The notes beneath the pieces were generated by a model. That model worked only from the letters and a program-made list of their open reading frames with translations, was not told where the DNA came from and made no database searches. This document shows, piece after piece, positions 37,493-63,203 of a DNA stretch of 64,000 bases; position 1 is the stretch's first letter; each line of letters opens with the position of its first letter. Origin of the DNA: Lentinus brumalis (taxonomy: Eukaryota > Basidiomycota > Agaricomycetes > Polyporales > Polyporaceae); assembly GCA_001792895.1 (NCBI GenBank), contig MARA01000011.1, forward strand, positions 992,001 to 1,056,000, read 5' to 3'. The position numbers and the translations under genes were made by a program.

Positions 37493-37496
37493 CCTG

Positions 37497-38318
37497 GTAT
37501 GACGCGGTTTACTGGACAATATTCACCTTGCTCTCACGAATTGCAGTGGTTTGCACTGGTCTGCAACCGTTGGATGAGTGTTGCAGTGTTGTGAGGTCGT
37601 TTGCGGACCGTTGCAGGGAGTCGTAGTGTATTTGCAGCCCAATGCAGCGCCTTGCAGCGGACGTGTCCGAAGTGCTGTTAGGCGCCATGTAGGCGCCCAT
37701 TCCTTCGTCTGAACCACGTTGCAGTCCATTGCAGAGGAAGCACACCAGTCTGCAGACTCTCTCCTCCGGCTTGCAGATTCACGAAACACAACACTGTACG
37801 GTGCGCGCCTCCCCGCTTTCCGCCTGAGGCTTGGTGTTGCACTGATTTGTTTCTGTTTGCACCCATGCGGAGACAGGTTCAAATCATCGGCGCCTCCACA
37901 CGTCTTGCTCTTTGCGTAGCCTTGCTCCCACTTGCACGCCCTGTCCGGGGCCCGACGCCTTGGCAGTTGCGCCACTGACGTCGGTCCCGATGCGTCGGCC
38001 AGATGCGTCGGCCGTCAACGTTCAACCCTCTGCCCAGTTCCCGCTGAAGCCGACCACAATCGGGTGCGAAACCCGAGAATTGCACCACGCCCGGTGCGGC
38101 CTCACTGCACCCCCGTACCTACCCTCCGTACTTTGGGCCGAGATCGGCCTCGTTCACGCCCCCGGCGACACAACGCTCCCTCACGCTGTACTTCAGCTCA
38201 TCACCGGCCTCGTTCGCGGCTGCGGCGACCTCCTCAGCTCGACACTCACTCTCTTCCCCGCTCCTTGTACCACCCGACACCCTTCAGGCCCTGCCGCCTA
38301 TCCGTCGCCACCTGCGCC
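37497..38318 (+). repeat. Left end of the giant element with TTGCAG array
   Basis: Inverted terminus at 37497, then TTGCAG, CTGCAA and TTTGCA words many times up to about 37900 (for example near 37541, 37582, 37610, 37631, 37648, 37720, 37731, 37771). The same words in the opposite orientation fill 62935-63130. No gene is visible before 38319. Confidence 0.75.
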
Positions 38319-40125
38319 ATGGACCCCGACGTTCAACTCAACAATATCCGTGCGTCGTATCGCGACATCCGCACACAAGTCGATATCGCCCTGCGCGCGT
38401 TTGTTGGAGATGCACCGCGCCTCGGGCAGGTCCGAACCCTTGCAACTTCGCTGCTGCACGCAGCGCAGCAGGTGCGTAGCTCTTGCCTTGATTATCCATC
38501 ACTCTCTCATCCCTGCTCAGCAACCGGGCTTGATGCCTCCCGCAGAGTATCAAACTTTGCGTAGTAGTCTGCAGCTGATGGTTTCCGACCTCGACGACGC
38601 CCGGTACAAGTCCAGGGACCCTCCGGATGAAACCCACCTCCCCCTCATTCAAACCGTCCACACAGGCAAGCGGGGTCGCCCATCCCAGCCCATCGATCGT
38701 ACGTGGCTTGAGCACGCACTCAAACTTCGCGGCCCAGCTCGTGTCGCCAAAGCTCTGAAGTGCTCCGCGCGCCACGTCCGCCGTGAAGCTCTACGTCTCG
38801 GGCTTGCAGAGCCAGCCCCGCCGGTCTTTCGCGCAGTTGAGCACCCCGACGGCACGTCCACGCGCATTCATACTACCCAGACAGCCCCCGTATCCACGCT
38901 CACCGACGCCGAACTGGATGCTATCCTCAGGGATGTACTCTCAGCCTATCCGCGCATGGGACATGTCATGCTACGCGGTGCACTGATAGCCCGGGGACAC
39001 CGCGTTCCCGAAGCTCGTGTTAGAACGGCCTGCGTCCGCATACGCGGCGCCCCGCCAGACTTCGCGAGGCGTCGTATAATCCGCAAGAAGTATAGGGTAG
39101 CGGGCCCGAACTCTCTCGTCCACCATGACGGTCAACACGGTGTGTCTGTTTCAAGATGTATGCTCCTTTTCTTGTCTCATTCTCCCGTCAGGACTTATAC
39201 GGTGGAAATTCGTCATCCACTGCTTCATCGACGGCTTCTCGCGCTTCGTCACTGCCATCCGCGTTCACACCAACAACCGTGCCGCGACCGTCTTGGAGTT
39301 GTTCCTAGAGGGAGTGCATACTCATGGAATGCCCAGTCGAGTCCGCGGCGACCATGGCACGGAGAACCTCCGAGTGGCCGCCTGGATGGAGGAGAATCGG
39401 GGTAGGAACCGCGGCTCATATATCTGGGGCCGGTATGTACTCCATTCGTCTGTCTCAACATGAATAACGTCTCATGCGCACATGCTAGGAGCGTCCACAA
39501 CACTCGCATCGAGAGACTATGGTTCGACGTCACCATCGGCTTCGGAGGGAAGTGGAAGACTTTCTTCCTCGAGCTCGAACACCACGACGACTTGAACGCG
39601 GACGACCCACGGCACATCTGGCTCATACATCACCTCTTTCTTTACGCGATCAACCAGGACGCCTACGAATGGGCGGATATATGGAACTCTCACCGCCTTC
39701 ATGTCAAGGGCGAGTCCGCTGCCAGCCCTCACGAGCTATTCATGTTCGGGGTGGCTGAGTGCGGCCCTCGCGGTTTGTCCCGAGCTGTTGCCCCTCCGCC
39801 GCCTCCGTCAGAGGAGGCAGTCGACGACATCGTCAACTACGGTGTAGATTGGGCTGCCATGGACGATCCTGTGCTCATGCGGCATCATCGCGAACACAAC
39901 CCGGACGTCCCTGATGTCCCTATCGTTCCGCAGCCATTGGAAACCGCCCCTACTCGTCTGTCTGAAGTGACCTGTGACCCTCCTACCTGTCCCCTCCCCC
40001 TCGATGTTGTCGCCTTGCTGAATCAACATCTTAGCTACCATTTCGACCTGACTTCACGCGAGATGCCTGTGCGCCGCGAGCTGTGGCGATCTGCGCTCGC
40101 GTTCTGTAGACCATGGTTCATGTAA
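38319..40125 (+). CDS. Integrase-like DDE transposase of the giant element
   Basis: Probable transposase: a retroviral-integrase-fold (rve-like) DDE enzyme of the type annotated in many Agaricomycetes as integrase core or integrase catalytic domain protein. Exons 38319-38471, 38521-39139, 39192-39432 and 39489-40125 give ~549 residues with no stop. N-terminal helical region; helix-turn-helix-like segment (WLEHALKLRGPARVAKALK, CSARHVRREALRLGL) at residues ~110-150; second helical domain (LSAYPRMGHVMLRGALIARG); then the catalytic domain. Candidate triad: D in HHDGQHG (~39128), D in RVRGDHGTENL (~39350) and E in NTRIERLWFD (~39510). Ends near ALAFCRPWFM. It is the only recombinase in the element, which supports it as the mover. 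Confidence 0.8.
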
Positions 40126-40326
40126 CGGTCCTCATCGTCATAATCTAATCGCTGTAATCCTAGCCTGCTCGTCGCTCTGGCCTGCACGAGCCCTTGCCTG
40201 CATGCCGTGCTCCGCCGACCATCGGCGCTTCGTGCGAGCGGCGGTGCCCGACTGCTTTTAGGTCTAGCTCAGCCTGCAAATTTCCTCCTTCAACGCATCC
40301 CACCTCACGCATCTCTGCCTACAGAT

Positions 40327-41015
40327 ATGCCCAAACAACTGGACGATGTCGAGGAGCTCATCAGCTGCCTTGAGTTCCGTAGCAATCTCGGTGACCCAGA
40401 TCACCACCCTACAGTAGTCCATGTCCACCCGGCGGACGGCGACCTCGTCACCACTACGTACGACATCGACTTACTCTTCGAACAAGTCGCTGCAGAGGCC
40501 CTGAAGCGATATCTTCGTGGCTGCGGCCATCCAGAACATCACTTCTTGCGCGAGATGCTCGGTGCAGCCACCTTCGAACGTGACCAGGAGGACACACTTC
40601 TCCGTGCTCGGTCGTTCTTACGCTCACTCACCGGGGACGACTTAATCCATTCTGAGAACCTCAAGATACAGGTGAGTGCGCAACCTCCTTTGTGTGGTTC
40701 CATTCAGCTCATCTTGCTTGTGTCCCAACCCCAGGTTTTCTTCTCTCATCGCGGAGATAGAGTCCTCTCTGAAACAACCCAGTGGAGGTCACTGTTGGTA
40801 CCAGTGCCCGTACGTTTATCACAATATGTTTAGCGTATGGCGGCTCACCGGTGAGATATCCTACCCAGATTGAGGTTCAAGCATGCTTTGCGCATTGCAC
40901 AATAACGATTGATGAAGCGGTCCGCAACCTGTTGAATGAGGGTCCCCCATTCTCCCAGTTTGAGGCATGGCTTCATGGGATGTTTCTCGATCCCAACGAG
41001 TACTTGGATATGTAA
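40327..41015 (+). CDS. HECT C-lobe-like protein (short)
   Basis: Resembles the C-terminal lobe region of HECT-type ubiquitin ligases. Exons 40327 to about 40671, about 40735-40808, and about 40872-41015. Segments: YLRGCGHPEHHFLREMLG, LLRARSFLRSLTGDDLIH (compare FLR..TGS in HECT lobes) and the end ACFAHCTITIDEAVRNLL, which has a cysteine where HECT enzymes carry the catalytic HTCF motif. The last ~45 residues align by eye with the end of the large HECT-like gene at 58092-62609. It lacks an N-lobe, so alone it should not bind an E2. The start is uncertain; the frame is open from 40207. Confidence 0.55.
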
Positions 41016-41288
41016 TTACCACACCCCTGTATGATTGCGCCCTTTGATATGGCATTGCGAGCAGCCGGTCTCTCAAATATGGCCCCACAACCCATGAGCC
41101 CCTCCGTGGCAAGTCTTACGTTCCGCCCAACGGCCGCCGTCGCAGCGCGGTTCAACCACGCCGATGGAAAAGATGGGTCTACATAGTATCAGTAAGTGCG
41201 TAAGCCAGCCTGTTACGATCCGCCGCGCTTGTCCCCACACTTGCTTCCCACCTCCATCATCATCTCTCCGTCCACAGTCTAAGACCCC

Positions 41289-42048
41289 ATGAATTCTTGC
41301 ACGACCTCTTCCACATCCAGCTCTTCCTCTGGCCCTTCATCTCTTTTGTTCCCTCTGCGTCCCGCTGATAACTCGTGCCCGGAACTGTTCACGGACTCCC
41401 ATTACACGTGCACTGCACCGGCTCTGCACACTCGCGATACATCAAGACGCCCAACTCGCCCGAGTGAGCAGTCGGCAGACTCTGAACGCATTGAGTGCTC
41501 GGATCCCAGCAGCAGTTCGACGATGGGACGGCGTAAGGAGCCCTGTGTGCAGTGCGCTCAGGCCAATGTTGCGCAAGATTGTACCCAGAATCGACGCACT
41601 ATCGGCTGTGTCCGCTGCAACGCACAGCGGTTGGCATGCTCGTATCGCACCGGTGAGCAGTTACATATCATGCCCCGCGCCCCTCCCTTACATCTTTGTA
41701 GGAACGGTTGCGAGCTCGCAGGATCTCGAAGTCCCCGTCCTCATCCGCAACATCGAGGGCTCTCTATCCCGGCTATCAGAGCAAACACGGGTGGTGGTAG
41801 AGCAGGTGGCGGGCAGTCAGCAGGCCGTTCACGGTTTGCGCGTCGATGTCCATGAATGCCTAGCGGAGACACGTGAGACACGCTCGACGCTGGAGAGGCG
41901 CATCAGCTCTGTGGAGCATGAATTGGGCAGGTTGACGAGGGTACTGCACGAGCTGCTCTGTACCATGCTGCAACCAGGTGAGCTCAACATGACATTCTTC
42001 ATGAGCTCTGGATGTGCCCCTGCACATACCTTCACCGTCCTGCCCTGA
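41289..42048 (+). CDS. Zn-cluster plus coiled-coil protein
   Basis: Candidate DNA-binding regulator. Exon 1 from 41289 to about 41652, intron to 41700, exon 2 to 42048. Six cysteines are spaced CX2CX8CX8CX2CX6C (CVQCAQANVAQDC ... GCVRCNAQRLAC), close to the fungal Zn(II)2Cys6 binuclear cluster (CX2CX6C...CX2CX6C) with a longer first loop. It follows a Ser-rich leader; an internal ATG at 41524 (MGRRKEPC) would start just before the cluster. Exon 2 is a coiled-coil (LIRNIEGSLSRLSEQTRVVV, ETRSTLERRISSVEHELGRL). Zn2Cys6 cluster followed by a dimerising coil is the usual transcription-factor layout. The 3' end may be spliced onward. Confidence 0.55.
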
Positions 42049-42830
42049 CACTCTCTGTTCTCCGGTTCCGCCGGGCTAGGATCACATCCTCTCTCATCTG
42101 GAGCGCCCTCTCATCCGACCGACACTCGCAGTGGCCATGGCGATGTGCCCGAATGACAGCTCTTCCAGACCACCTGCGTAGATCAGCGATGTAGATTCCG
42201 CCACTCGTACTACCCTTCGTAGAAGCCACGCCCGGCGATGACCTTCGTGTAACGCACGGACTTGCCTCCGGGCCAACCACATTCTGCACACAGGTCCTCG
42301 ATGTGCTGAGGAGACCAACCCCGCGTTTGCTGCTGTATCGGCAGATGTCCGCACTGAATAAGTACCGCGTTGCGTGTGTCAGTCTTGTCTCCCGTGCATA
42401 TACCAGACTCCTCTCGATCCTCCCCTGTTGTGACACCTATTCAAATAGCTATCTATTACTTACGTGTGCGTCTGAGGTGTTCAAGATAACGAACCCTGCC
42501 AGGAATAGAGTCGTTCTGAATGACCCACATGGCATGGGAGGGGGAGGACACCCCCACGCTATCGCCCATACCATCTCGTAATTACTAACCACATCCCAAC
42601 GGCAGTCATTCTGTATATGGTGGTCCAAGGTCAGACGAATCGTCGAGGCTGCCGTGGCGTGTGGGTATGCAGATGAGGGGCTGTAATGGGTCGCCTGCAC
42701 GTGGCAAATTGTACGCTGCAACAAGTGGTGTTCTCTCTCTTCTCCTCGTGCCCTCCATGTCTCGGCTTTCCACTGCTTTCTATCACCTGTCCGTCTCAGC
42801 CGGCCCCTCCTCTTAAAAACCTTGCGGCCG

Positions 42831-44921
42831 TAATGGATCAGCAACTTCAAGGCTCTGTGGGCCCGCTTGGAGCAGTCTCCATCCCTTTCCCTGGAGATAC
42901 AGATCTCTTCAATGCATCCATGGAGAACACCTCAATTCCGGAGAACGCCTCAAATCCCGAAAACACCCCAATTCCAACTGCGCGCTCTCAAAGGTACCAA
43001 CGGCGAGCACAGAGACAGCCCCAAGGACATGCAGTCCGAGCTCCCATCGCCCGGCCAGTCCGCCCCGCGATTGTTCATACTCCCGCAGAGAGCGAATCGC
43101 AGAGCACCCGTGAGTCATCAACCGCACAATTATTCCCTGGCCTTTCTCATCATTCCTGCAAGTCAACCCTCCTTCCGCAGATATATCTCCTCATAGCAGC
43201 GAAGGTCAGCCACCGGCAAATTCTCCCCAGCGACCTAGCAATCCACGCACATCATGTACGCATAGACCAGCTTATATATGCATGTCCTTGACCAGATCTG
43301 ACCTGTGCCACTACTAGTCGTTGATTCGACAACCACCGTACCTCCCAATTCTGATGGCGCACCGTCCCTGCGCCCGCGCAGTGCGTCCGGCGGCTTGAAC
43401 CAGGGTTGCGACGTTCTTCTGCATGCCTCAGAGGCCTCCATTCAGCCCGACTCGTTCAGCATCAACATCGAGAGGGACAATGATGCATCTCAGTGTGCGT
43501 GGTAGACCTATAGGTGTCATGTGTGTACGTCTTAACCAGTGATATTCTCAGTATCCAGGCCGCAAACTCCCTCGCTGCTAGAGCTTTCTCCCCCTGGAAT
43601 CCGCAGTTGTGAGGTCCCTGCGGCCCCGATCACCTCGCTCATGGGCGGGACACGCGCACCCATGCACGCCCCCGAGCAGGGTTCTTCTGACAGCTTCAAC
43701 ACCCCCGTCCCGAGCCTGGCGACCGCACCTGATGTTGAGCAGGAGTCCGCATCCTTGGACAGCCCACAACCACGGGACATGCGCACACTGGCGGAGGCAG
43801 TTCGAGCGTACGTCAACGCGCGCAGACCCATCTTTCAACCGGTACCCTATGATCTTGCGCTTATGCACCAGCGCGCTGTTCGCGACCAGGTGAGCATACT
43901 CTCAGTCCTTCGCAAGCACTCTCTCATTTGATGTGACCTAGCTGGCTAGGCAGGACCACGCCAATGCATGGTCCGCCCCGAGCTTCTTCGTGGACCCGCC
44001 CGGCGCGCCCTCCGTAGCTCGTGTCGCTAGCGTGGCAGGGGAACCCTCACGTTACCTTGCCTCCACTCCCGCCTCAGTGGGACCCCCATCCTCCGTCCCA
44101 TGGAGAAGCAGCATACCACGCACGATAGAGTCCAGTGATGATGAGTTTGACTCCTTTCGCGACTTCGGTTTGTAAACCCCACTTTGCTCCAGAGGTATGC
44201 CACTGACTTCAATGCACAAACAGCGGACGGCCACTCCTCCCTGGTCTCCCCTGTCGAAGAAGAGCTTGAGGACGACATCTGCTCCAACGACGGTCAGGAC
44301 CGGGGACCGAAGCCTCTCCCGACGGTTGACCCGCTCATTGTGGAATATATATGCGCCCGCTTCCCCGAGCGCGTGCGCACCGCACGCGCTCTCAGCAGCA
44401 AGCCACCGCCATACGGAGTTGCATACCGGGACGTCCTCCGCTTGCGGTGCATCGGCGGTGCGCTGGCAGACTTGGGGATGGGCACCGGTAAACCAGATTG
44501 TAAGCTCGTCACTGTCCAGGTGGATAGCGAGGACGTTCATATTCGTCCGGACAACGTTATGATCGTTTTGGGCATGCGTCCCTCAACGTATCGCTCTGTT
44601 CGGTCACGCCTGGAGAAGGTCCAAGCCGTGTACACGTGGTTGGGCCAGAACAAACGTGTATGGCAAGTCGATGCTCCTCCGCACTCTCTACCAAGCATCG
44701 AGTATCGGGCCTACAATGCGATGAACGCTTTATTTGGGCCTAATCCCTTGCCGAACCGTCGTATCATTCCCCTGGAGCCCCACCCAGCAGGCGTTCATGA
44801 CGCTCTCTGGGAACCATGTGCGACATTCACGTTCTGGGCCGACGCGGTGGTGAAGCGGTATGGGTTGGAGAAGACGATCAGCCTTCCTGTCTCCCCGGAC
44901 TTCTACGATCGCCCTATGTAG
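42831..44921 (+). CDS. Long Pro/Ser-rich unknown protein of the giant element
   Basis: I recognise no family. About six exons; approximate segments 42831-43110, 43180-43257, 43319-43493, 43552-43890, 43942-44170 and 44222-44921. The N-terminus is rich in Pro, Asn and Ser (ENTSIPENASNPENTPIP). The middle has LAEAVRAYVNARRPIFQPVP. The C-terminal ~230 residues look folded: LIVEYICARFPERVRTARAL, DVLRLRCIGGALADLGMG, GMRPSTYRSVRSRLEKVQA and FWADAVVKRYGLEKTISLP. Stop at 44919. It lies on the same strand after the Zn-cluster gene, and the two could be one transcription unit. Splice sites are not all certain. Confidence 0.5.
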
Positions 44922-45063
44922 AGGCTTCCATGTAAACCATTGTATATGCTTAACATGCATCGCTCGTTGGTGATCAGTTCTTGAGCGGCGGGCAGTTACA
45001 ATCGGCCAGGTGCACCTTGTAAGTAGGGTTCAAGGAATGCTATTACGCGGCTCTTAGGCTCCT

Positions 45064-46060
45064 CGGTTACATGTTGTCAAGTCGCGCTTCAACAGCTGCG
45101 CGCATGTACATTACGTTGAATATCACAGAGAGCAGGTTGGAGGTAACCTCGCCCGAAGCAAGTTCGTAGAGCGTATCGACAAATTCGTCCCCCTCCGCCA
45201 CCCAGTCCCTCATCTCCGCCATCCAGGAAGTTCGGGTCTGCACATCAGCATGCTGAGCCTTCTGCATATTCTTGTCGAGACTGCGCTGATACTTCACGAA
45301 GTCTTCCGTGTACCCCCAGTCCAGCAAGGCCTCGTTCAGCGCGACAGTGCGCGCGAACTTCTCAGAGTTGTGAATGTTGGGCACTGGGACAGGACCGGTC
45401 CTGTGATCCAGTCAGTATGCATGATTGCCGCCTCGAAGCCTTATACAAACGACTCACCGGCTGTCATCCTTTTTCAATGTGGTCGTGTATGAGCGCGGCG
45501 ACCGCTTGCTATCCTTCAGGAGCCCTGCCGCCTCTTGGCACCTAGAGCGGGACTGGGACGGGGTACCTTGGTTGCTAGAGGTTGCTTGGTCAGGCCCGGG
45601 CGCATTGGCATTTCGACGTTCGAGGGACATTGCAACACGCGTCGTGTCGGCTTCGGCTGCAGACATCGAGGCGGCCATGCCAGGGGTGGCAGCGCTGCTG
45701 ATAGCGCCTGAGCACTGAGCTCTGGAATGTTTCGGACTGAATCACACTCACAGTTTGCGCCGCAGATAATGCCTGCGATTACGGTCCCGGCGGAGACGCT
45801 TCCGCCGCTCCTGCTGAGTCTCTGCCCTTTCACTGTCATGAGGTGACTGCTGGGTGGCACCGACAGGATACATAGGAGGAGTCTCCGCAGTGGGTACTCG
45901 GCTGCCAATACCAGGTGAGGCTTTCTCGGGAGATAGGCAGACGAAGGAAAACTTACAGCTTGCGCCTCACATAATATCTGCGATTGCGCTCCTGGCGGAG
46001 ACACTTCTGCCTCTTGCCGTCGTTTGCGCTATACGTGTCGGTGGTATGGCACGTAGGGTT
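45064..46060 (-). CDS. Small basic/helical protein, paralogue of the KDZ one
   Basis: Uncharacterised. Minus strand. Two exons carry tandem copies of a basic motif: KCLRQERNRRYYVRRKL near 45960-46010 and KRLRRDRNRRHYLRRKL near 45750-45810. The last exon (45384-45067) is helical: VALNEALLDWGYTEDFVK, WMAEMRDWVAEGDEFVD, then ELASGEV. It matches 20764-21160 in the KDZ element by layout and residues (ALKAWGF against ALLDWGY; WVVEGD against WVAEGD). Stop at 45067-45069. The 5' end above 46060 is not resolved. The double basic motif suggests nucleic-acid binding. Confidence 0.58.
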
Positions 46061-46099
46061 TGTGCCCATGCCGGGAGAGTAGAGATAACAGAGGTATAA

Positions 46100-47981: not shown

Positions 47982-48093
47982 TCAGTCAGTGCGTGTAGCA
48001 TGATACTTAGTCCATTACAGTGCTCACCAACAAAGGGTAGGGACGAACGCAACGAGGAGCGTAGAGGCGGGGGCGCGTTGGTGGTTTGAGAGA

Positions 48094-49275
48094 GATAAGC
48101 GAAACGCGGGGGCGGGGGAGTGCCCCTCCCCTCCCACTGAGCGTTTGAGGCTCCGCTCGGCACTCTCCGGATAACGCTATCTCATGGGACGACCACGCTT
48201 TCTCTCTCCTTCAACCTCTCCTCCCCTCTGACTCTGCTGCACTTCCAGTCAGTCCCCTCCTTCCGGCATACGTGCAAGTCTCCTCAACGTACTATCCGGG
48301 CGCGAAGGTGGCGAGGGCACGAACGTCGGATGCGTAAGTAAGTTTTTTTTTGCCCTCTCATCCCAACCACCCCACTCGGGCGAAACACCCAAGCCTCCCC
48401 CACATCTCATGCCCGGACTCCATCGCTGTTCCAGCGAGGAGCTCCGAGGCTGTCGCCGCGTCGTGCTCGAGAGCGCGTTGTTCCAACGCCCTCGACTCAC
48501 GGCCGGCAACTCGAGTTTGGTTCGGACTTCGTCGCTGTTCCAGCGAGGAGTTTTGAGCCTGTCGCCGCGTCACTCGAGGTGGCCCGGACTTCATCGCTGT
48601 TCCAGCGAGGAGCTCCGAGGCTGTCGCCGCGTCGTGCTCGAGAGCGCGTTGTTCCAACGCCCTCGACTCACGGCCGGCGACTCGAGTTTGGTTCGGACTT
48701 CGTCGCTGTTCCAGCGAGGAGTTTTGAGCCTGTCGCCGCGTCACTCGAGGTGGCCCGGACTTCATCGCTGTTCCAGCGAGGAGCTCCGAGGCTGTCGCCG
48801 CGTCGTGCTCGAGAGCGCGTTGTTCCAACGCCCTCGACTCACGGCCGGCGACTCGAGTTTGGTTCGGACTTCGTCGCTGTTCCAGCGAGGAGTTTTGAGC
48901 CTGTCGCCGCGTCACTCGAGGTGGCCCGGACTTCATCGCTGTTCCAGCGAGGAGCTCCGAGGCTGTCGCCGCGTCGTGCTCGAGAGCGCGTTGTTCCAAC
49001 GCCCTCGACTCACGGCCGGCGACTCGAGATTGGTTCGCACTTTGTCGCTGTTCCAGCGAGGAGTGTCGAGCCTGTCACCGTGTCGTGCTTGAGCCTGCAG
49101 CCTCGAGGTGCGCCAGACTGCATCGCTGATCCAGCCAGCAGCTCGTAGCCTCATCGCCTCATTGCCGCGTCATCTTCGACGTCGAAGCCCGATGCGCTAT
49201 CGCAGGTACGTGATGGTTGTGTGGCAGCAGATGACGCGTAATCACTGACGTACCCGGCTTTCCAGTAGTCCCTGA
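48094..49275 (+). repeat. Minisatellite module, copy 1 (broken gene start)
   Basis: Diverged copy of 52040-53110. Both begin with a block around CCCTCCCACTGAGCGTTTGAGGCTCC, pass through TCTCTCCTTCAACCTCTCC and a T-tract, carry a tandem repeat, and end in a short exon start followed by a GTACGTG intron. Here the start codon position reads GTC (GTCGAAGCCCGATGCGC) where copy 2 has ATG, so the gene start is lost. Confidence 0.8.
48416..49080 (+). repeat. Tandem repeat, ~180 bp unit
   Basis: About 3.7 nearly identical copies of ~180 bp. Each has two half-units that share CGCTGTTCCAGCGAGGAG and TGTCGCCGCGTC. Both strands stay open across the array because the unit length is a multiple of three, so the long frames there are not evidence of genes. 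Confidence 0.92.
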
Positions 49276-49519
49276 AGATGTACCTGTTCGCGATCATCGG
49301 CCGTTCGTCCCCAACAAACCTTCCAGCCTTTGGTGAGCAGTCCTCTTCCGCGTCGTGATTGCGGTGTGCTGTGGCCTGACTGTGTCATAGCGTCCGTCCG
49401 TGTCCCGGGCAACCGTTGCAGGCGTTTCGATGCTGTGCACCGGCCGCCGCCATCTGGGATTGCCCCGCACACGACCGCGCTGGTCCGAGTCACCCTCGAG
49501 CTCCTTGTCTTCTACCACC

Positions 49520-51160: not shown

Positions 51161-51163
51161 GCA

Positions 51164-51606
51164 TGTCAAGCAGAGACATCCTGCGGGCGCGGAGACTCAA
51201 TTCCATGTACCTCGGATCGGACTGCAGGCATACTTACATTCGCACTGACGCAACGTACACCTCCCAGGTCCCGCATCGCTATCGTGTCGTCGTATACCGA
51301 GGCGCAAATCTGCCTTCGGAATCTGAACAATACCGTGAGTTCAAGGACCACACGCTGGACGCGTTCGAGAAGCGCCTGTGTCCGGACGAGTACTGGAAGA
51401 AGGCGTTCCATGCGGCGCCCGATCCGGCGCTGAGGGGGGTCCCGCTGCCCGATGTTGCGCTCTTGCGCGCGCGTGCGGCGATGGTGGCGATCCTGCACGA
51501 GAGCGCGGTCGTTCAGGCGTTGGATGGGCTGAGGTACCGTAAGGGAGAGGAGATTCCGGCGGCGGACGGGGAGCCTCATGCGGCATTTGCGGGGGTTGGG
51601 GTATGA
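51164..51606 (+). pseudogene. Unidentified fragment next to the carrier
   Basis: Open frame directly after the carrier stop. The convincing part is the C-terminal ~110 residues (PHRYRVVVYRGANLPSESEQ, FKDHTLDAFEKRLCPDEYWKK, LLRARAAMVAILHESAVVQALDG), which looks like real protein sequence, perhaps helical, but I recognise no family. The start at 51164 is arbitrary. It may be a second captured gene fragment or the 3' exon of a gene whose 5' part was not carried. Confidence 0.4.
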
Positions 51607-51829
51607 GGGGTCGTGGGTCTGTTCGAGCTGATCGCGATAGGATGGGATGAGGCTGGCAGGTAGGAAAGACTGGCATGGAGGCCGCTTCCAGTAGACACAC
51701 TTCTCGATAGTATCAACCTTCCAGTTGCACAATTGATTGCTCACGCTGTCACACTATCTTATGAGTGCAAGTATGTAGATCTGGGTCCTGTTTAGTGGAC
51801 TTGGAGATATGCCGCCACCCGGTTCCCCT

Positions 51830-52041
51830 CCTCGCCATCTCCTGGCCTTGCCTACAATTCCGAGTTCTCCAACCCTACGCCAGTGGAACGAGAGAAACGC
51901 AGCGACGCGAAGGTCGATTTCGTCCAGAACGACGGCGCGTACATCCCGTTCTCGTACGGGCCGATGAACTGCCCGGGGAAGGGGCTGGCGATGCTCGAGA
52001 TGCGGACGGTCGTGTGCGCGTTGCTGCAGCTGGTAGCGTAA
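51830..52041 (+). pseudogene. Cytochrome P450 heme-binding fragment
   Basis: In one frame from about 51912 the sequence reads VDFVQNDGAYIPFSYGPMNC then PGKGLAMLEMR. This is the P450 cysteine loop (FxxGxxxCxGxxLA) with the heme-ligating Cys, and it is followed by the start of the L helix. It ends at a TAA (52039-52041) where the second minisatellite module begins. The rest of a ~500-residue P450 is missing, so this is a captured fragment. Confidence 0.75.
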
Positions 52042-53110
52042 ATTGCGGGGGCGGGGAGAGCCCCTCCCCTCCCACTGAGCGTTTGAGGCTCCGCTCGGCA
52101 CTCTCCGGATAACGCTATCTCATGGGACGACCACGCTTTCTCTCTCCTTCAACCTCTCCTCCCCCTCTGACTCTGCTGCACTTCCAGTCAGTCCCCTCCT
52201 TCCGGCATACGTGCAAGTCTGGCGCATCAACGTACTTTCGGGGCGCGAAGGTGGTAGGGTACGAACGTCGGATGTGAATGTGAGTTTTTTTTTGACCTCT
52301 CACAAGCTTCCCCCACACATCGTGCCCGGACTCCGTCGCTGTTCCAGCGAGGAGCTCCGAGTCTGTCGCCGTGTCGCGCTCGAGCGTGCGTTGTTCCAAC
52401 GCCCTCGACTCGTGGCCGGCGACTCGAGGTTGGCCCGGACTCCGTCGCTGTTCCAGCGAGGAGCTCCGAGTCTGTCGCCGCGTCGCGCTCGAGCGTGCGT
52501 TGTTCCAACGCCCTCGACTCGTGGCCGGCGACTCGAGGTTGGCCCGGACTCCGTCGCTGTTCCAGCGAGGAGCTCCGAGTCTGTCGCCGTGTCGCGCTCG
52601 AGCGTGCGTTGTTCCAACGCCCTCGACTCGTGGCCGGCGACTCGAGGTTGGCCCGGGCTCCGTCGCTGTTCCAGCGAGGAGCTCTGAGTCTGTCGCCGTG
52701 TCGCGCTCGAGCGTGCGTTGTTCCAACGCCCTCGACTCGTGGCCGGCGACTCGAGGTTGGCCCGGGCTCCGTCGCTGTTCCAGTGAGGAGCTCTGAGTCT
52801 GTCGCCGTGTCGCGCTCGAGCGTGCGTTGTTCCAACGCCCTCGACTCGTGGCCGGCGACTCGAGGTTGGCCCGGGCTCCGTCGCTGTTCCAGCGAGGAGC
52901 TCCGAGTCTGTCGCCGTGTCGCGCTCGAGCCTGCACCAGTGTACCAGACTGCATCGCTGATCCAGCCAGCAGCTCCTAGCCTCAACGCGTCATCGCCGCT
53001 TCATCTTCGACATGGAAGCCCGACGCGCTATCGCAGGTACGTGTTGGGGCGGTTGCAGCAGATGACGCATACTGACTGACGTACCTGACTTTCAAGTAGC
53101 CCCTGAAGAT
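52042..53110 (+). repeat. Minisatellite module, copy 2 (with intact gene start)
   Basis: Same layout as 48094-49275 with independent tandem-repeat structure. It ends in the promoter-proximal part and first exon of the small gene at 53012. The two modules bracket the carrier, the unknown fragment and the P450 fragment. Confidence 0.8.
52325..52935 (+). repeat. Tandem repeat, ~110 bp unit
   Basis: About 5.6 copies of a 109-110 bp unit starting GGACTCCGTCGCTGTTCCAG. It shares the core CGCTGTTCCAG(C/T)GAGGAGCTC and GTTGTTCCAACGCCCTCGAC with the 180 bp array of copy 1 but lacks the second half-unit. Confidence 0.92.
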
Positions 53111-53359
53111 GAACCTCGGCACATACAGCCACTGGCACGCCGCAGAACACACCAACTGCCCTTGGCCTCGCCGGCGGAACGCTCAGTCGCTGGACAGCAA
53201 GCTTCCCAAGTTCAAGTCGCCGTTGACGAGATGGACAACGGCACTCGGGTCCTGCATCTCGATGTGTTGTATTTCGGAGAAGCTGCCCTGAACGAGTCGT
53301 CCGCGACGAGCCCGAGCAGCGACAATGCCGACCGTCCTATCTCGCCCACCGACGTCTAG
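53012..53359 (+). CDS. Small protein downstream of minisatellite module
   Basis: Two exons, 53012-53036 and 53097-53359, predict ~95 residues starting MEARRAIAV and ending NADRPISPTDV. No family recognised; the middle is Arg/Gln-rich (PLARRRTHQLPLA), the end acidic. The same first exon and intron layout, with ATG changed to GTC, occurs at 49190-49290, so an ancestral unit was duplicated. It may be longer if spliced onward. Confidence 0.45.
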
Positions 53360-56300
53360 CTCACACATCCGTGCGCGCTGCGTCCCGTACGCTACCCGCA
53401 TCCGCTTCCCGGACTACTACGGCACGTCGAGCCCGTTCAGTGACGACGACTCGGACGACTCGGACACGCCCCTCTCCCCGCCTGAGCAGCGGCACCGCGG
53501 ATCAATACCGCATTCAACAAAGCAGTACGTACATGTTTTCCCTCAATGTATGTGCACAGATTGCTCACTGATTGCTCCCGACGACTCAAGCTACATGCCC
53601 AGTCGAAGCGCGCGCCATGCGTCGATAACCATCCTATGTCGCCCATCGATGTGTCGCGCACGCAGATCCACGCTCTTATGCGTTTGTTTTGTTATGGTGT
53701 TCACCGAGCTCAAGATAGATCATAGAGACTGATGAGTTGAATCGATCAAGCTGTAAGATAGTGCGACCCGGCCAGCTGTACGTATATAGATTTGGGGAGA
53801 GTGACTCCGAAATTTGCGTCGCCGTCGAAGAGAACATGTTCAGCACGGCCGCTGGCCACGAATGCTCCTGCTGCCGCGGGGCAATAGAGGTATCGTTCTG
53901 AACCCACAGCGTGTTCTGAGAAGGATGGTGCCACGACGCGACGCGTTACATGGCGCCGGCGAACGTGTCGCTCTTTGGGGAGTCACCGCAGACAACTGTT
54001 CTGCTTGCCCCACCATCTCCTGGCCTTTCCAGCCATGTTCGCCTACGAGCTCAAGACGCTGCGAAGGCTGGACGTCCGTCATGCCAGTTGTGGTGCCTTG
54101 GGCACTCGATCCATACGTCATTGCGCTGTCTTGGATGCCCGAGTGGCCCCGCTCTCGATCGTTGCACGCTCTCTGGCGACCGTCTCCCACTGCCCGCATA
54201 TTGCTTGCTTTGACTGCCCAGGCAGGGCCCTAGCCCTCCCCGACCGACGCTCGCGCCAGGTGAGTGTTCGTTCCACGTGGACTGTCCTGCCGTTACTGTA
54301 CCTCGACTTGCGATGTATGAGCTGTATGTACTACATGCGGAATACCAACCCTCTCACCTCTGTGCGAGTCTCAGTCTGTCTGAGCACCCACACACATGCA
54401 GGTGAGCTGCACTTTTGGCAGCCGTGCTACTCGCTGTGCAAGCCCGCTCAAGGAGTCACTTCCGTCCAGGAGTCCTCCATCCGAACACTCCGTCCCTCCA
54501 GCCCGACTCTCGGGCTTGGTCTCTCAAGCGGCACGACCTCGGTGCGGCATACGTAAGTCTTCAACCACACGGCTTCTAGCCATAACACTCCGTCCCTCCA
54601 GCCCGACTCTCGGGCTCGGTTTCTCAAGCGGCACGACCTCAGGTGCATCTGTGCTCGGCATACGTGAGTCTTAAATTACACAGCTTTGAGCGGAGGAATG
54701 CCACTTACCGTCAAGTTGCCGTTCAGCACTGGAGGTGATCGCAGTCGTGCTGAACGATGGGCGATGTGGGAGAAGACAGGCAAGGTACGTCCTGCGCGGC
54801 GGCGACGATGACAGCGACAGAGAGGAGAAGAGTGCCAAGCAGACACCGTGGAGTGGATGAGGACAGGTGAGAGCCGGGTCCGGAAGGCAACACCGCGTAG
54901 CCCTGGCACTTACTATACGCCTTCACCGCAGGAAAAGCACCGCGCGTAGTACAGTCGCCTGCCAACGAGTACTCCGCTGCGCGCATGCATGTTCGGCCCA
55001 GAGAGGGCACCCCGTTGCTCGTCGCTCAGTGCCGGCTGCCCCGACGCCAGCACGCACCTGGTGGCCACCGTGCCAGCTCTGACCGAACGTACGAGGGCAT
55101 CCATTTTGGTCTCGACGAAGCGCGTGCAACCCTTGTCCAAGCTGCGACTCGTGCGAGCCATACTTGTGTGGCCTCCCTTGCCTTCGCATCTAGCACAAGA
55201 GGACAACGCACTACCGTACAGTCCCCCCTTTCTAACGCTAGACACCGAACGCAGGCTCGAGCAACGTGCGGAAGGTTTGTCTGAGGTCCATCTCGCCGGC
55301 CCCGAACGAGGACTCAGATCGCAAGCAGCGCGTCGGCGCGACGGTGTCTTGACTCGCAAGCCTCAAGGAAACCAGATGTGCGGCCTCGTCGGCGACAGCG
55401 TTGCGCGGTGCAGCCGGCCGATGCTCAAAGCTGCGAACGCGGGGGTCAGTGCGCCCCTGCGGTGTCCGGATCATAGGTCGATGCTCACGCTCTCGCTGCG
55501 GCATTGCAGCAAGTCCTGCGGCCTTGCTGGGGAAGAGCATGAGGCTGGAGGATGCAGAGGCTGACCATACACGAAGACACCCGCCAGTCATGCCGTCCGC
55601 TCGAGCGTCGACCGCGCACAGGTACCGGCTCACGCCGGCCTGGAACCTGATGAATCAGAGCTTGGAATTGAGGCTCTGGATCGGGATTCGCACGTCAGAC
55701 GTCGGGCGCAACGAGCAATACGGTGCCCACTGCGCACACTCCAAGATGCACGCTGGCCCGCCTGCGTCGAGTCGCATGAGGCTCGGAGTATCCGAGTTCT
55801 CGTGGACCGTACGTACCTCTTTATGTGCGTGTCGGACCTCGCTGCGCTCATACCAACGGAACTCACGCACACGGACAGGAGAAGTGTCCCGGCCGAGCCA
55901 GCTTGCCGGACACGGACAGGTCATACGAGACATGGGGCTGAGTATGAAACACACCAACAGCCGCAGACGGCAAGCAGACCCAGACCGACGACCCGCCTCC
56001 AAGCTCCCGGGATACTCGAGTCCGGGAGACTAACGGCAGGTACAGCGTAATCTGGAGTGCACGGCGATAGTTGTCGGTGCAGCGTCTGCGCAACACCAGA
56101 TTCAAGTTCGTGTTCCATTGCATCTGACACACACTCCGCACTCGAAATCAAGCCGGGGCTCGTCTCGCTTCACTCCGACATGCTTGGGCACTGCGGGCAG
56201 TTACGGTTGTGGCTCTCGCTCTTCATGGTAAGCTTCTAGTGCATAACGAATGGGTAAGCACTATGTCCACATACCTGACGTCGTTTGGCCGGACTGACAT

Positions 56301-56760: not shown

Positions 56761-56763
56761 ATT

Positions 56764-57680
56764 TCATTCACGCGAACGTTGCAGCCAAGCTCCCAATGTG
56801 CTCACGGGCCCGACTGCGTCAGCACCCCATTCCGACCACAAGGGACGAGCAAATGTGCCCTCAGGCACCGGTAGACCATCCAATGCCTCCCCAAACTCCA
56901 ATTCCGACCCGCAGTCCCAGTCCGCTTCACTGGACTCGATTTCTGCGGGCTCAGGCGGGTACCAGTCCCAGCGGCCCATCCACCATGGATGGTCGAAGAC
57001 GTCGTCCTGGCATGAGAGTCAGCAATGCAACGTACCATGAGCACATCGCCGAAGTATGTCCACTCTCACCGGAAGGTTCGCCTTGCCCCAGGAGGCCAAC
57101 GCGGAGACTCGTGCGTCCTCGGTTACATCCTGATCCTCGATGATCTCCCATACGTATGCGGCAAATAGATGCCAGTGGGTCTCCACCACAACCTCGTCGG
57201 CCGGGCAGTGCCGTGCTCCGAAGTACGCCAGAATTGCGCGCAGCTCCGCGAAAGACTCTTCATGTGTTGCCTGCAGCTGCCCAAGGTCGATATCCATCGG
57301 CAGATATCGCTTCCACGGCCTACATTCGCAGCGGCGAGTAGGGAACGGCAGCTGTGGGAGACCACTTAGGGGCCAACTTGTACGAAGGACCAAAAAACTC
57401 ACGCAGATGATCTTTTCGTCAACCGCGCATTCAGCCCCGGCGGCGTAGTGTAGGTGCACCTTGATAGTGAGGCGGGGAAGATGGCCGACTCCCGAGTTTT
57501 CCGCGCCGTCCACAAGGCGAATGAAGCCGTAGCCTCGTGCCCCAAGGACAGGCAAATCCCAAGGGGAAGGAGGGATCGGCTCTCCCCATGGCGTCATGTT
57601 CTCTGGCACTTGAAGGTGCTCTGCCAACGGCGTCGTGTCCACCTCAACAGGCTCTCCCCATGGAATCATGTTGACTTGAA
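56764..57680 (-). CDS. Unknown ~230-residue protein of the giant element
   Basis: No family recognised. Minus-strand exons about 57680-57407, 57356-57075 and 57010-56764 keep one frame with good GT-AG sites. Features: MIPWGEPVEVDTTPLAEHLQ with a second PENMTPWGEPIPP copy, LPVLGARGYGFIRLVDG, LPRLTIKVHLHYAAGAE; then AELRAILAYFGARHCPADEV and HLFAAYVWEIIEDQDV; and an acidic Trp-rich end (WWMGRWDWYPPEPAEIESSE). An upstream extension to 57939 is open but unlike protein. It sits between the gene-poor stretch and the large HECT-like gene, same strand as the latter. Confidence 0.55.
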
Positions 57681-57699
57681 CGATGGATGGTGATACAGT

Positions 57700-58091: not shown

Positions 58092-61000
58092 CTATGCCTG
58101 ATTGTAATCGTCAGGATTGAGCAAGGCACCATGCATCCACGACTGAAACTGATTCCAGGGTTTACCCTCGTCCAGCAGGTTTCGTAAACCATCATCGACG
58201 GTCACGGCACATTCATAGAAGCAGGCGTGAATGTCAAGCTATGCGTCGATGCGTCAGACATTGAGATAGATCAAACCTGAAATGGTACACACCGGAGCTG
58301 GGATGGGGTTGACGGCACGGCCGCCCTTGCGGTCGCGAACACCGGTGTGGATGAAGGTAATCTGCGCAGAGGAAATGAGAGCGATGACAACGCGCGACCA
58401 GATAGGAAGCTCACCTTGATCTTCAGGTGCGATTCAATTGGCTTGAGGTCACTGCCCGACATCATGGTGAGGAAGAGGCGGGCACGAAGGAGAGCATTCC
58501 CGGCCTGCTCCTGCCATTCGTCGCCGACCATCTGCTTGATGATACGGGTATCAGGATGACCTGGCTGGCGAATGTAATGTTCTAACGCAAGCATGAAGTC
58601 AGCTTCGTAGGTCGTATCCCAAACGGAATCCGCCAAGCCCAATGTTGCCGGCTTCTGGTGACCGGGCTCGGATTTGCCATCATCTGAACTTGACAGGAAC
58701 GTGAGATCAACTTGGGAATGATCAACCCCGCTCTCAGGTTTGAGGAGGGCGAGGAGGTCGTCCACGTCGTCGAGCCGTTGGTTGCACATCGCAGCCAGGT
58801 AATCCCGCTCCCGGCCCAGAAAGGTCTGCCACATGCGGTGTCAGCGGCGACTAAAATAGCAGTCAAAGGGAAGAGAAGTGTACCAGGACAACATCCGAAC
58901 GTTTTGCATGCACCGCAAAGAAGCCGCAAGCAAATGCCGCCAAGTCATACTCATCCTTCAGCTTGCCATGGCCGAGGACCATGTGAGAGACGAGAGTCTG
59001 TTCGATCACTTGCAAGTCTTCGTGCTGCAGCGCATGGGTCCCGTAGTACACGGGCTGACAACGTTGAAGGTCAGTCAGCCATTGTTAACACGTCCAGGTA
59101 CGTGCGACGTACGTTGATGTCCGCCTCAATGAGAACGTTGTACAAAAGATCATCACCGGATGTGGGCAGCGCAGATGTAGTGTCAAAATGGATCCAAGGC
59201 TGAAGCGCATCCCACATTCCAGGATCCATGCTACGCATGAACATCTTATCAATGCTCAGCGGGCCACGTAACACCCTCATAAGTAGGAATGGAGAGATCG
59301 GGTCAGGGCCGACGAGAACGACTACCGGGTGGAGAAGAGAAAAGAAGCCCGCGGTGCGCAACGCACAATCGCGTTCCACCCTGACGCCTCTCTTGAGGAA
59401 CCACTGGATTGTCTGGAAACGCCCGCGAGGCTGCCAGTACTGCGCGTCGCTCACCAGAAACTTGATAGCTTGGCGGACGACCGCGCGAATAGGACTGTCT
59501 CCGAGGGCGCACGAGCTGAAGAGCGTTCATAGGTAAATGTTAGCCCATGCCGGTATCAGGATGCCTGTAGATGCTTACACTTCAATGTCCAGATGGCGAG
59601 CATGGCGCAGAACCTCGACGAGTGGGACAAGACGGCACGCAGCACTGTGTACGGGAAATGCGCGGGCAAAATCCAGCGCAAATCGCTCGTGAAGCTCAGG
59701 CGTGATGCCGCCACTGCCAAGGTCGAGCGGAGCAGTCATGAACCACCAATTGACGAGGAAGATAAGTATCTGGGCGGCCTGCTTCGTGTCCTTCGCTTGA
59801 ATAGAGGGCCGTAGGTCGTCTGCATCAGCGTTCGGAGACGGCGGTGGGAGAGCGGAGATGACACGATCAGCCCAGGCCGAAAGCTCGAATCTCTTGACTT
59901 CACGCAAGGGCACGCTGAAGACATTGTCACCCTGTGATTGCCCGTCCACATGTCAACAGCAGCTGCCAGTGATGACGCAACAGTACTCACGACGCGAGCG
60001 GGTGTAGAAGCCGCAGCAGGTGGGTGGTGTTGGCCGATCGGTTCAGCGACCTCCTCCACTCGACGACGATTGCTTGGAGGGCCAGACAGCGCTGGAGAAA
60101 CCTGGGAAGTCATTGGGTGAACACGTCAGTCAAGATCATCCTGCCCCTAAGAAAACACGTACCTCAGGCGATGCCCGCTCACTATGAGTTCGCCGCTGAG
60201 AACTGGAGGCCCTCGAACTTGACGCTGGTGGTGCCGACATAAGCTGAACATGATCTGAGTTGACTGGCGACCGGCTAGCCTCTTCAGTGTCCTCTTGAGT
60301 ATCCTCCTGATTTGAAGCGACGGCGGTGCGGTTGCGCCGCCGTGATGAGCGTCTGCGCTCTCCAGGCGGAGGAACATACGCGGTCATACGGGCAGTCTGT
60401 CTCCGCCTGGGGCGCGTCTGCCACAATAAGATGTCAACAGCGGTGAGTGGTGTAACACGTCGCACGACTTACTGTGGGGGCTGGAGGCGAATCAGCGGAA
60501 GCCGCGGATGGACCGGACACCAGCGGTTGCACCACAGTCCCGTCTACTATGACGTGCAAAGGTCCTGGCAGGGACAAGGGAGGTGGCTCGGACGTACTCG
60601 AGGGGCCCGTGCCAGAATGATGCAACCATGGGCCGAAAGGAGACTGCGGTGATGGGGAATCCGGGGCCATCATGGCTGCTTCTAACCACTCGCTCTGCTC
60701 ACGAAGACGTGCAGTAGTGGCAATGGGGGCGTGACGGCGACGGGCGACATGATGGCGACAGGCGGCACAACGGCGATGGGCGAAGCAATGGCCGCGGGGG
60801 CAGCAGTGCCTATAGGTGAGCCAATGGCGACAGGCGGGCTGACCCGGACAGTCGAACGTGCTGAGCTGCCCTCAGCGACGGGGTCGGGTGAGTTGTTACC
60901 AGAGGCAAGCGCAAGCGAATCCGCGGGAGCCATTGTGGCGGGCAGCGGGCTCGGGCATCCCTTGCCGCACGAGGCAGGCATGCCTGGGAGTAGCACGGGG

Positions 61001-62609
61001 GAGAGGAGATGCTGCGGGAAGCAGGCATGGGGACGTTCGCGGTGGGAGATGGTGAGATAGTCGTCGAGCCCTGCCGCCTCCCCCACGTATGCTGAGTGAT
61101 TCTCGAGAGGAGCTTGCAAGTCACCGAACCGAGGAGCTGTGACCACGATTAGTTACAACATAGGAGCGTAGATGAAGGCCAGACTCACCAATGCGTAGGA
61201 ACGGCAAATGCATTAGCTCCTGACCGACGGGGCAGGAGATACTCGTGAGCGGAGGCCTTTTGCCGGTCAGCCCTGCATAAGTGTATTGGAGCTCGTTGAA
61301 GCTGTCGTACGGGCTATGAATTTTGGTGAAGATGTCTTTGACGGTACCGGCTAGAAGGACAAACGGCAGGTGCTGTGGGGCCTCCCAGGGAATTGCGGGA
61401 TTGTAGCCGGGCAGACGGATGCCGCGGGACTCAAGCTGGTTGACGACCTGCTCACCGAGCGATCGGAAGACTGAACCAGTGCGGGACAGGTCGACCGTGA
61501 AGACGAGGCCCCAATGCATGAGTGACGTCACGACTTTGGTGAAGTCTTCTTGAGTGAACGCCATAGCCTTGCCGGGATACTTGCCTCGCCCGAGAGCAGG
61601 ATGCTAGAAGAATGTTAGCATGAAGGGACGGCATTATCAGGGCAGACGGTTACTCACTACGAATGGGAGGCAGCACACAGCTACCTTCGCCAGGTTCGCG
61701 CCGGACATGGTGGGCGCCGTACAGGCAGACGAACCAGCTACAGGCTGCGGATGCAGCTGCAGAACGGGCAAGGAGGTGCCAGCTGGTGGGGCTGGCGAAG
61801 GGACGACCGTGGTGCGGGATCGAGACGCATTGTTCGAACGCGGCGCGCTCGCATCTGCGCGATGACGTAGAATCGCCGCATTGCGAATGTCGCTCGTGGA
61901 GCCCTCGTCATGCGGACGGACAGCCGTGTAGGCGGAGACGGGAGGGGCGAGTGGGACGCTCGGTGGCAAGCTGGAACGCAGCGCCGGCCCAGACGGCGCA
62001 GACAGGGGAGCAAGGACCGTGGCCAGGGCGGGATGGGTCATGCTGAATTGCGGCGGAGCGGCGGAAGACAGGGACGGGCTGCAAAAATGTGAACAACTCG
62101 CGGTGAGGGAGATCGATAGGAGATGACATACATTGAAGCTGTCGAAGAGGCCGCAGGGGCATGCGCGCGCAACGCACGCCCACAGACACAGAGGGTCGTT
62201 GGACCCCAGCGGTCGCGCGGCTCCAGCTACGAGGAATGAGTAAAATGGCCAACGAGCCCGCAGAGACTTGGGCGTACCGCGAAAAATCCCCCGCACCCAC
62301 TGACCTCACATCCGCCACGCGATGTCTCCATGTTGCTGGACTGGTGTTGAAACCAGGGGTGCTCGCACTGGTGACACTGCTCATCAGGGCGAAGAGCAGT
62401 CTGGAAATGAGGGGAAGGCGAGGGAGGTAAGTCATGAGGAGCGGGAGGCGGCGACGGACAACCATAAAAAAACTCACCTGCCGCTCGAGGTTGTTGTCCG
62501 TGACCGCAAAGTACGCGCAAGGCCCGTGAGGGTCCGTCCGGCACTCCAGACTGTGGCAAACACCACGGGCAGGACACATGCCCAACATCGGGGGAGTAAA
62601 CGCAGCCAT
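58092..62609 (-). CDS. Large HECT-like ubiquitin ligase-type protein
   Basis: Resembles a group of Agaricomycetes HECT-like proteins. Start 62609: MAAFTPPMLGMCPARG, then an N-terminal zinc-binding block (CHSLECRTDPHGPCAYF; QCHQCEHPWFQHQ; GGCEVSGCGGFF). A low-complexity Pro/Ser/Ala region follows, then a folded domain (LMHWGLVFTVDLSRTGSVF, LPFVLLAGTVKDIFTKIHSP) near 61560-61200, and another linker with Pro/Ala/Val repeats. The HECT-like part: VGPDPISPFLLMRVLRGPLS near 59290 and MDPGMWDALQPWI (compare G..P.SP.LL and DP...L..W of HECT N-lobes). Then LLRARLFLTMMSGSDLKP and a last exon with HACFYECAVTVDDGLRNLL, the Cys in the HTCF-like position. Stop at 58092. At least eight short introns; some boundaries are approximate. 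Ligase activity is inferred. Confidence 0.6.
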
Positions 62610-62929
62610 GGGCGGTGGTACGAGATGACTGAATTGGCGAAGTAGGAGGTCGTGGGGAGGTGAATGGAGGATGAAGGGCAAAGACAAACACGAACCTGGT
62701 GCCGCCTCCCAGCGAAAGCGCCTGGGCCTTCGGACTTGCATCGGCTTGACAGGTCCGGGTTATAATTGTAGAGCTGTCATGGATAGAGCATTGAGCCGTG
62801 TGGATGGACGGCGAAACGGTCTTGGCGGCGAGAGTGGTGGTTGAACGAAACACGGTGGCTGTGTCCGAGGGAGAGAGAAACACTAAACGCTTGATTCTCA
62901 GGCACACGCGAGCGCCTGGGGCGAGAAAT

Positions 62930-63199
62930 CTCGCGAGACACCTTTCGTTGCAAAGCTCTGCAAGCAGGCGGCACGGCAGCGCAAGCCGGTGCAAAGAGGA
63001 CCGTAAGGTGCGGTTTGGTGGCGTTGGAGGACTTCCCCTCTGAGGGGTGCTGCAAAGGGGCTGCAAAACACTGCAATGGGACGCAATCTGGATGCAAATG
63101 TAGGCAAATCACGGCAAATCATAGCAATTCTCCGCATGCGGTCGCAAGCGAGGGCAAACATCCAAGTCATTTTATATTGTCCTATAACCCTCGTCATAC
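62930..63199 (-). repeat. Right end of the giant element with CTGCAA array
   Basis: CTGCAA/TTGCAA/GGCAAAT words crowd 62945-63140 in the orientation opposite to the TTGCAG array at the left end. The inverted terminus CGTCATAC ends at 63199, followed by CCTG. Confidence 0.75.
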
Positions 63200-63203
63200 C
63201 CTG

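What the first reader, a model, noticed from the sequence alone, without database searches (positions are those of the whole stretch)
37497..63199. A 25.7 kb giant DNA transposon with an integrase-type DDE enzyme, DNA dioxygenase, HECT-like enzymes and host cargo
Inverted ends (GTATGACG...), a 4 bp CCTG duplication and in-frame rejoining of the interrupted gene define one unit. It carries an integrase-fold transposase, a TET/JBP-type dioxygenase, two HECT-like genes, a Zn-cluster protein, a basic helical protein and captured metabolic genes. I know of no described superfamily with this set. It looks like a large cargo-carrying transposon of mushrooms, loosely analogous to Starships of other fungi but with a DDE rather than a tyrosine recombinase.
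Basis: partly seen in the sequence, partly recalled or inferred. Interest (0 to 1): 0.92.

Follow-up and report, generated by a model that had tools for sequence, protein, structure and literature searches.

The report
Giant gene-capturing IS3EU mushroom transposon
A mushroom genome carries several copies of a 20-30 kb jumping DNA element that moves as one block, brings its own DNA-demethylase-like and ubiquitin-ligase-like genes, and in this copy has also picked up pieces of host genes.

Summary
The element is real. TA..TA termini, 6 bp duplications and a DD34E rva_4 integrase point to the described superfamily IS3EU/GingerRoot, so "no described superfamily" is not supported. Five complete copies (20.9-30.0 kb) and one split over two contigs each have a perfect, different 6 bp duplication; two copies are 99.9% identical in the stretches compared, at different sites. 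Paralogous empty sites span the junction. Eight core genes are collinear in the copies read through (one gene missing in one copy); seven were tested and evolve under purifying selection: transposase, TET/JBP dioxygenase, two HECT-like genes, a Zn-cluster protein, three unknowns. New here: helically phased subterminal TTGC arrays, an element-specific palindrome array upstream of TET, and in this copy mosaic host DNA (mitochondrial carrier gene with introns and other fragments) beside a duplicated array. TET+ IS3EU is published for rusts and Tuber, not Polyporales. A giant, gene-capturing variant of a known kind.

The parts
37492..37497 (.). left 6 bp target-site duplication CCCTGG
   Evidence: sequence
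63199..63204 (.). right 6 bp target-site duplication CCCTGG
   Evidence: sequence
37498..37522 (+). left terminal inverted repeat, TATGACGCGGTTTACTGGACAATAT
63174..63198 (-). right terminal inverted repeat
37498..37797 (+). left subterminal array of inward-facing TTGC motifs about 10 bp apart
62899..63198 (-). right subterminal array of the same motif, mirror orientation
38319..40125 (+). transposase, 549 aa, 4 exons, rva_4 integrase core, DD34E (D254, D311, E346)
40327..41015 (+). short gene similar to the C-terminal HECT-like part of the 58092-62609 gene (2 or 3 exons, model uncertain)
   Evidence: HECT by similarity only; Pfam gives only FAD_binding_1 at E 0.018 under cut-off
41523..42048 (+). 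Zn-cluster (Cys-rich) protein, cluster 81% and 83% identical in two other copies
   Evidence: no significant Pfam match
42833..44921 (+). core protein of unknown function (594 aa); C-terminal 200-230 aa 62-65% identical between copies
   Evidence: fold inconclusive
45067..46069 (-). small basic protein; found in the C1 copy, not in C126
46519..47969 (-). TET/JBP-type 2OG-Fe dioxygenase, 406 aa, HxD..H..R kept
48411..49084 (.). palindrome array (CGCTGTTCCAGCG / CGTTGTTCCAACG), copy 1, upstream of TET
52324..52934 (.). palindrome array, copy 2
49442..51226 (+). captured host DNA with mitochondrial carrier gene, introns kept; 92.7% to C104:266839-265057
51240..51818 (+). captured host DNA, 85% to C104:263462-262891
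51818..52030 (+). captured P450-like 3' fragment, 93% to C99:45639-45427
   Evidence: P450 motif by eye from memory, no Pfam match at E 0.01
53182..53627 (+). captured fragments, 87-95% to three stretches within C1:3039853-3041690
57019..57669 (-). core gene of unknown function
58092..62609 (-). large core gene (1207 aa) with C-terminal HECT-like domain

Best explanation
A giant autonomous IS3EU-type cut-and-paste DNA transposon of a mushroom whose closest protein relatives are polypores. Shown: it has defined TA..TA ends, 6 bp duplications, and copies of 20-30 kb at different sites, one pair nearly identical. Inferred: its DD34E transposase binds the TIR and the helically phased subterminal TTGC sites, excises the block and inserts it at staggered 6 bp cuts. 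The TET-like dioxygenase oxidises 5-methylcytosine on the element and the HECT-like proteins ubiquitylate host silencing or repair factors, so that the element escapes silencing; the Zn-cluster protein or another core protein reads the palindrome array upstream of TET. Host DNA enters by error-prone, template-switching repair of breaks in or near that array, which is why the array is duplicated beside the captured genes in this copy. Step confidences: mobile block 0.97; IS3EU membership 0.85; TET as anti-silencing 0.55; HECT-like E3 activity 0.45; capture by template switching at the array 0.45.
For: Six different perfect 6 bp duplications: 5 of 5 complete copies and one split copy. C93 and C101/C87 copies are 99.88-99.96% identical over 848, 1,526 and 2,201 bp; the two end comparisons stop within one base of the element end. 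Paralogous empty sites. Core order transposase+, short HECT-like+, Zn+, unknown+, basic-, TET-, small-, HECT-like- in C13 and C1; the same without the basic gene in C126. pN 0.15-0.41 against pS 0.68-0.79, rough dN/dS 0.06-0.34 for the 7 of 8 core genes tested (not the Zn gene). I grouped the 87 transposase matches into 17 loci whose longest match is at least 55% identical (12 more distant loci left out): 15 of 17 have a TET match on the same contig within 26 kb, 10 of 17 a HECT-like match within about 32 kb. Homologues of the HECT-like and the 42833-44921 protein: 6 and 5 proteins, those with names from Lentinus, Polyporus, Cerioporus and distantly Sistotremastrum (one search scored a capped candidate list). 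A Lentinus brumalis model fuses relatives of the 58 kb and 57 kb genes (by eye); two L. brumalis homologues are listed with the same 199,278 bp contig length. Subterminal sites: 142 TTGC inward against 15 outward in 10 of 15 ends; in 9 of 15 ends 240 of 284 pairs 8-44 bp apart are in helical phase, 0.845 against 0.216 for random placement (maximum of 1000: 0.307). Palindrome pattern: 24 hits in 53.4 Mb, all inside four of these elements (the pattern was taken from three of them). Captured segments 85-95% identical to places on 3 other contigs or regions, introns kept. TA..TA and 6 bp TSD as IS3EU hallmark: PMC10045372.
Confidence: 0.8

Rival explanations
1. An undescribed DDE superfamily unrelated to IS3EU.
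For: Gene set (HECT-like, Zn-cluster, unknown core proteins) not mentioned in the IS3EU texts that I read; no transposase tree could be made.
Against: TA..TA termini and 6 bp TSD are the stated IS3EU hallmarks; ends TATGA..TCATA resemble TAYGG..CCRTA of rust TET+ IS3EU; transposase / TET / opposite-strand gene layout as in TET+ IS3EU; rva_4 and DD34E.
Confidence: 0.1
2. TET and HECT-like genes are cargo useful to the host, not part of the element's own machinery.
For: Some giant fungal elements carry host-beneficial cargo (recalled); TET and HECT-like matches also occur without a transposase match beside them; no expression data here.
Against: They keep order and strand in 3 of 3 copies read through and recur beside the transposase in 15 and 10 of 17 loci, while the host-derived DNA is specific to this copy among the three read.
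Confidence: 0.12
3. The 25 kb is a chance nest of smaller transposons around a short integrase element.
For: Nested insertion does occur: C126 holds an 8.1 kb repeat with 10 other full-length copies at 97-98%, and C93 has stretches that C101 lacks.
Against: Five complete copies pair the same two ends with 6 bp duplications; three read through keep the same gene order; the 20.9 kb C1 copy lacks the C126 nest.
Confidence: 0.03
4. A Polinton/Maverick-like element (15-20 kb, integrase, 6 bp TSD; recalled).
For: Size, integrase and 6 bp TSD fit.
Against: No PolB, packaging ATPase, protease or capsid family in 9 gene models and 8 further ORFs of the element (not every ORF was scanned).
Confidence: 0.02

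Closest known systems
TET+ IS3EU transposons of rusts and Tuber (Kojima 2025, PMC12730594; parts 1-4 of 7 and passages read)
   Same: IS3EU-type ends and 6 bp TSD; TET/JBP gene between transposase and a gene on the opposite strand.
   Different: There the opposite-strand gene is an alpha-kinase; here HECT-like genes and further core genes, 20-30 kb. The 8 alpha-kinase matches of this genome lie outside the elements mapped. The paper reports only TET+ Kyakuja in Polyporales.
Styx of Zymoseptoria (PMC10853768; passages and part 1 of section 13 read)
   Same: IS3EU-related multi-gene element; 36 bp TIR, searched by its authors with a 6 bp TSD setting; active.
   Different: 7,927 bp with four ORFs (transposase, GATA, CCHC, DUF3577); no TET or HECT-like gene in what I read; Ascomycota.
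KDZ and Plavaka TET+ transposons of Agaricomycetes (PMC12730594)
   Same: Mushroom DNA transposons with a TET/JBP gene.
   Different: Other transposases and TSD lengths; a Plavaka transposase lies elsewhere in this window.
Starships
   Same: Large, cargo-bearing fungal element (recalled; PMC12134995 seen in the listing only).
   Different: Tyrosine recombinase and ascomycete hosts there; DDE transposase with TIRs here.
Pack-type gene-capturing transposons (Pack-MULEs, Helitrons; recalled)
   Same: Mosaic host fragments with introns inside a DNA transposon.
   Different: Different superfamily; here capture sits beside a duplicated internal array in a copy that keeps its transposase gene.

Membership tests
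IS3EU/GingerRoot | TA..TA termini | tested here: met
   TATGACG..CGTCATA or close variants at 15 ends found by pattern and the C44 left end
IS3EU/GingerRoot | 6 bp TSD | tested here: met
   5 of 5 complete copies and one split copy
IS3EU/GingerRoot | IS3-like DDE core without HHCC | tested here: met
   rva_4 E 6.7e-59, DD34E, one simple HHCC pattern absent in the N-terminal and core part; that rva_4 is the IS3EU core is my inference
IS3EU/GingerRoot | transposase clusters with IS3EU in a tree | not testable with these tools
   no Repbase sequences at hand
TET+ IS3EU as published | alpha-kinase gene | tested here: not met
   none by Pfam in 9 gene models; 8 genome matches lie elsewhere
TET+ IS3EU as published (rusts) | TIR longer than 30 bp | tested here: inconclusive
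   27 nt at 85%, ungapped
TET/JBP dioxygenase | HxD..H..R motif in a Tet_JBP domain | tested here: met
   PF12851 E 3.6e-7 (under cut-off); motif aligned to NgTet and CcTET
AG-type TET (CcTET-like) | Asp at CcTET position 337 | tested here: not met
   Ala in the alignment
PE-type TET | HxE | tested here: not met
   HWD
PU-type TET | clusters with PU type | not tested
   no PU sequences compared
HECT E3 ligase | HECT fold | tested here: inconclusive
HECT E3 ligase | catalytic Cys in the C-lobe | tested here: met
   Cys kept in 6 of 6 rows of A3 and 5 of 6 homologues of A1; not in the short gene of C126 (by eye); its catalytic role is by analogy
HECT E3 ligase | Pfam/sequence-level HECT match | tested here: not met
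Starship | DUF3435 tyrosine recombinase | tested here: not met
   no such match in 9 gene models and 8 further ORFs of the element
Polinton/Maverick | PolB and capsid genes | tested here: not met
   no match in the same 17 proteins

The most novel reading that the evidence does not exclude
A distinct giant-transposon kind of mushrooms: an IS3EU-derived, roughly 20 kb, eight-gene selfish element that attacks silencing on two fronts (DNA demethylation by TET, protein ubiquitylation by HECT-type ligases), packs its ends in a helically phased nucleoprotein complex, and uses an internal palindrome array as a hot spot for capturing host genes, making it a DDE-based basidiomycete counterpart of Starships.
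Probability: 0.3. Interest if true: 0.85.

Novelty: new variant of a known kind. Interest (0 to 1): 0.66.

Why it matters
Giant cargo-carrying elements of fungi are mostly known as tyrosine-recombinase Starships of Ascomycota (recalled). A DDE element of this size in mushrooms, with nearly identical copies at different sites, would give a tractable system for how a cut-and-paste transposon handles 20-30 kb, how it counters DNA methylation, whether a transposon can carry a HECT-type ubiquitin ligase as core machinery, and how whole genes with introns are captured.
Full report
Observation. The first-listed inverted repeat pair of the region is 37496-37522 / 63174-63200. Read with termini TA..TA, the element is 37498-63198 (25,701 bp) between two copies of CCCTGG. 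Without the element and one duplication, a 327-codon frame runs across the junction; a paralogue at C35:11354-11946 aligns through it without gap (77%), another at C126:1252863-1253464 is 70%. These are paralogues, not alleles.

Other copies. A pattern of the TIR with up to 3 mismatches has 15 hits in the 53.4 Mb own genome, 0 for the reversed control. Complete copies: C13 25.7 kb (CCCTGG), C1 20.9 kb (CAAGGC), C126 30.0 kb (CAATGG), C93 29.4 kb (GTTATC), C44 24.2 kb (GGCGAG); the ends on C101 and C87 carry GACAAC and its complement, one element split over two contigs. C93 and C101/C87 agree at 99.88-99.96% in the stretches compared (848, 1,526 and 2,201 bp); at the two ends the agreement stops within one base of the element end, and inside, C93 has stretches that C101 lacks. 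That is recent movement followed by insertions. C126 includes an 8.1 kb nested repeat.

Core and selection. Against C1 and C126 the proteins keep order and strand: 8 of 8 core genes found in C1, 7 of 8 in C126 (the basic gene is missing). pN is below pS in all 7 genes tested (13 comparisons), rough dN/dS 0.06-0.34, with saturated synonymous sites and upper bounds where dS could not be computed. I grouped the 87 transposase matches into 17 loci whose longest match is at least 55% identical, leaving out 12 more distant loci. Of the 17, 15 have a TET match nearby (not C82:297k, C66) and 10 a HECT-like match (C13, C1, C126, C93, C101, C44, two on C82, C104, C55); of the seven without, five lie near contig ends. 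Four TET loci and six HECT-like loci stand without a transposase match beside them.

Non-coding structure. In the first 300 bp of 15 ends there are 155 TTGCA/TGCAA sites against 9 in the adjacent 300 bp outside; four ends have 0-4. TTGC faces inward 142 times and outward 15 times in 10 of the 15 ends, with spacings of 10, 20, 30 and 40 bp, mostly within 1 bp. In 9 ends 240 of 284 pairs are in helical phase, 0.845 against 0.216 for random placement, and there are 130 TTGC against 14.6 in shuffled sequence; sparse ends (C82R, C13bR, C53L) were not in these two tests. Upstream of TET in the three copies read lies a tandem array whose unit holds CGCTGTTCCAGCG and CGTTGTTCCAACG. A pattern of it occurs 24 times in the genome, all in the C13, C1, C126 and C44 copies; the control had 1 hit.

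Cargo. Of the three copies read only this one has two arrays, in direct repeats of about 1 kb (48106-49285 and 52045-53116). Between and beside them lies DNA also found elsewhere in the genome: carrier gene with introns (92.7% over 1,791 columns to C104), 593 columns at 85% from 1.6 kb away in the same place, 213 bp at 93% from C99 starting at the very base where the previous piece ends, and three pieces from C1 at 87-95%, joined in another order and orientation than there. Weaker matches (C52 79-84%, C62 71-72%) were not followed. Such joints are what template-switching repair would leave; that, and the direction from host to element, is inference.

Classification. PMC10045372 states that complete IS3EU are always TA..TA with usually 6 bp TSD. 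PMC12730594 describes TET+ IS3EU in seven rust species and in Tuber indicum, with an alpha-kinase gene, and only TET+ Kyakuja in Polyporales. The present element works like IS3EU and meets the features that could be tested, but is large, lacks the alpha-kinase and has HECT-like genes instead. Homologues of two core proteins were found in Lentinus, Polyporus, Cerioporus, one unnamed entry and distantly Sistotremastrum (6 and 5 proteins), so the lineage may be a polypore one; the host itself is unnamed. The claim that this combination is unreported rests on the searches in an open-access library; Repbase, the paper's supplements and subscription papers were not seen.

Noticed in passing
G000 C45, C49, C95, C110, C109 (L016-L020): Five transposase loci, 99.3-99.4% identical in the four pairs compared, lie about 9-18 kb from contig ends with a TET match still nearer the end; perhaps subtelomeric duplicates.
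   Followed up: partly
window 16092-17798: Plavaka transposase (PF18759, E 2.2e-90), another mushroom transposon kind that elsewhere carries TET genes.
   Followed up: no
window 3390-5141: NACHT/NPHP3_N ATPase (NLR-like) gene.
   Followed up: no
window 33563-35467: Reverse transcriptase and RNase H domains of a retroelement left of the element.
   Followed up: no
window 27509-27852: Array of about 49 copies of a 7 bp unit GTCCCTC.
   Followed up: no
G000 C126:965156-973247: 8.1 kb repeat with 10 other full-length copies at 97-98% identity, nested in the C126 element.
   Followed up: partly
window 55286-56001: 71-72% similar to four tandem copies spaced about 9.4 kb on contig C62; nature unknown.
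   Followed up: no
G000 C18, C35:777k, C54:348k, C82:2498k: TET matches without a transposase match beside them.
   Followed up: no
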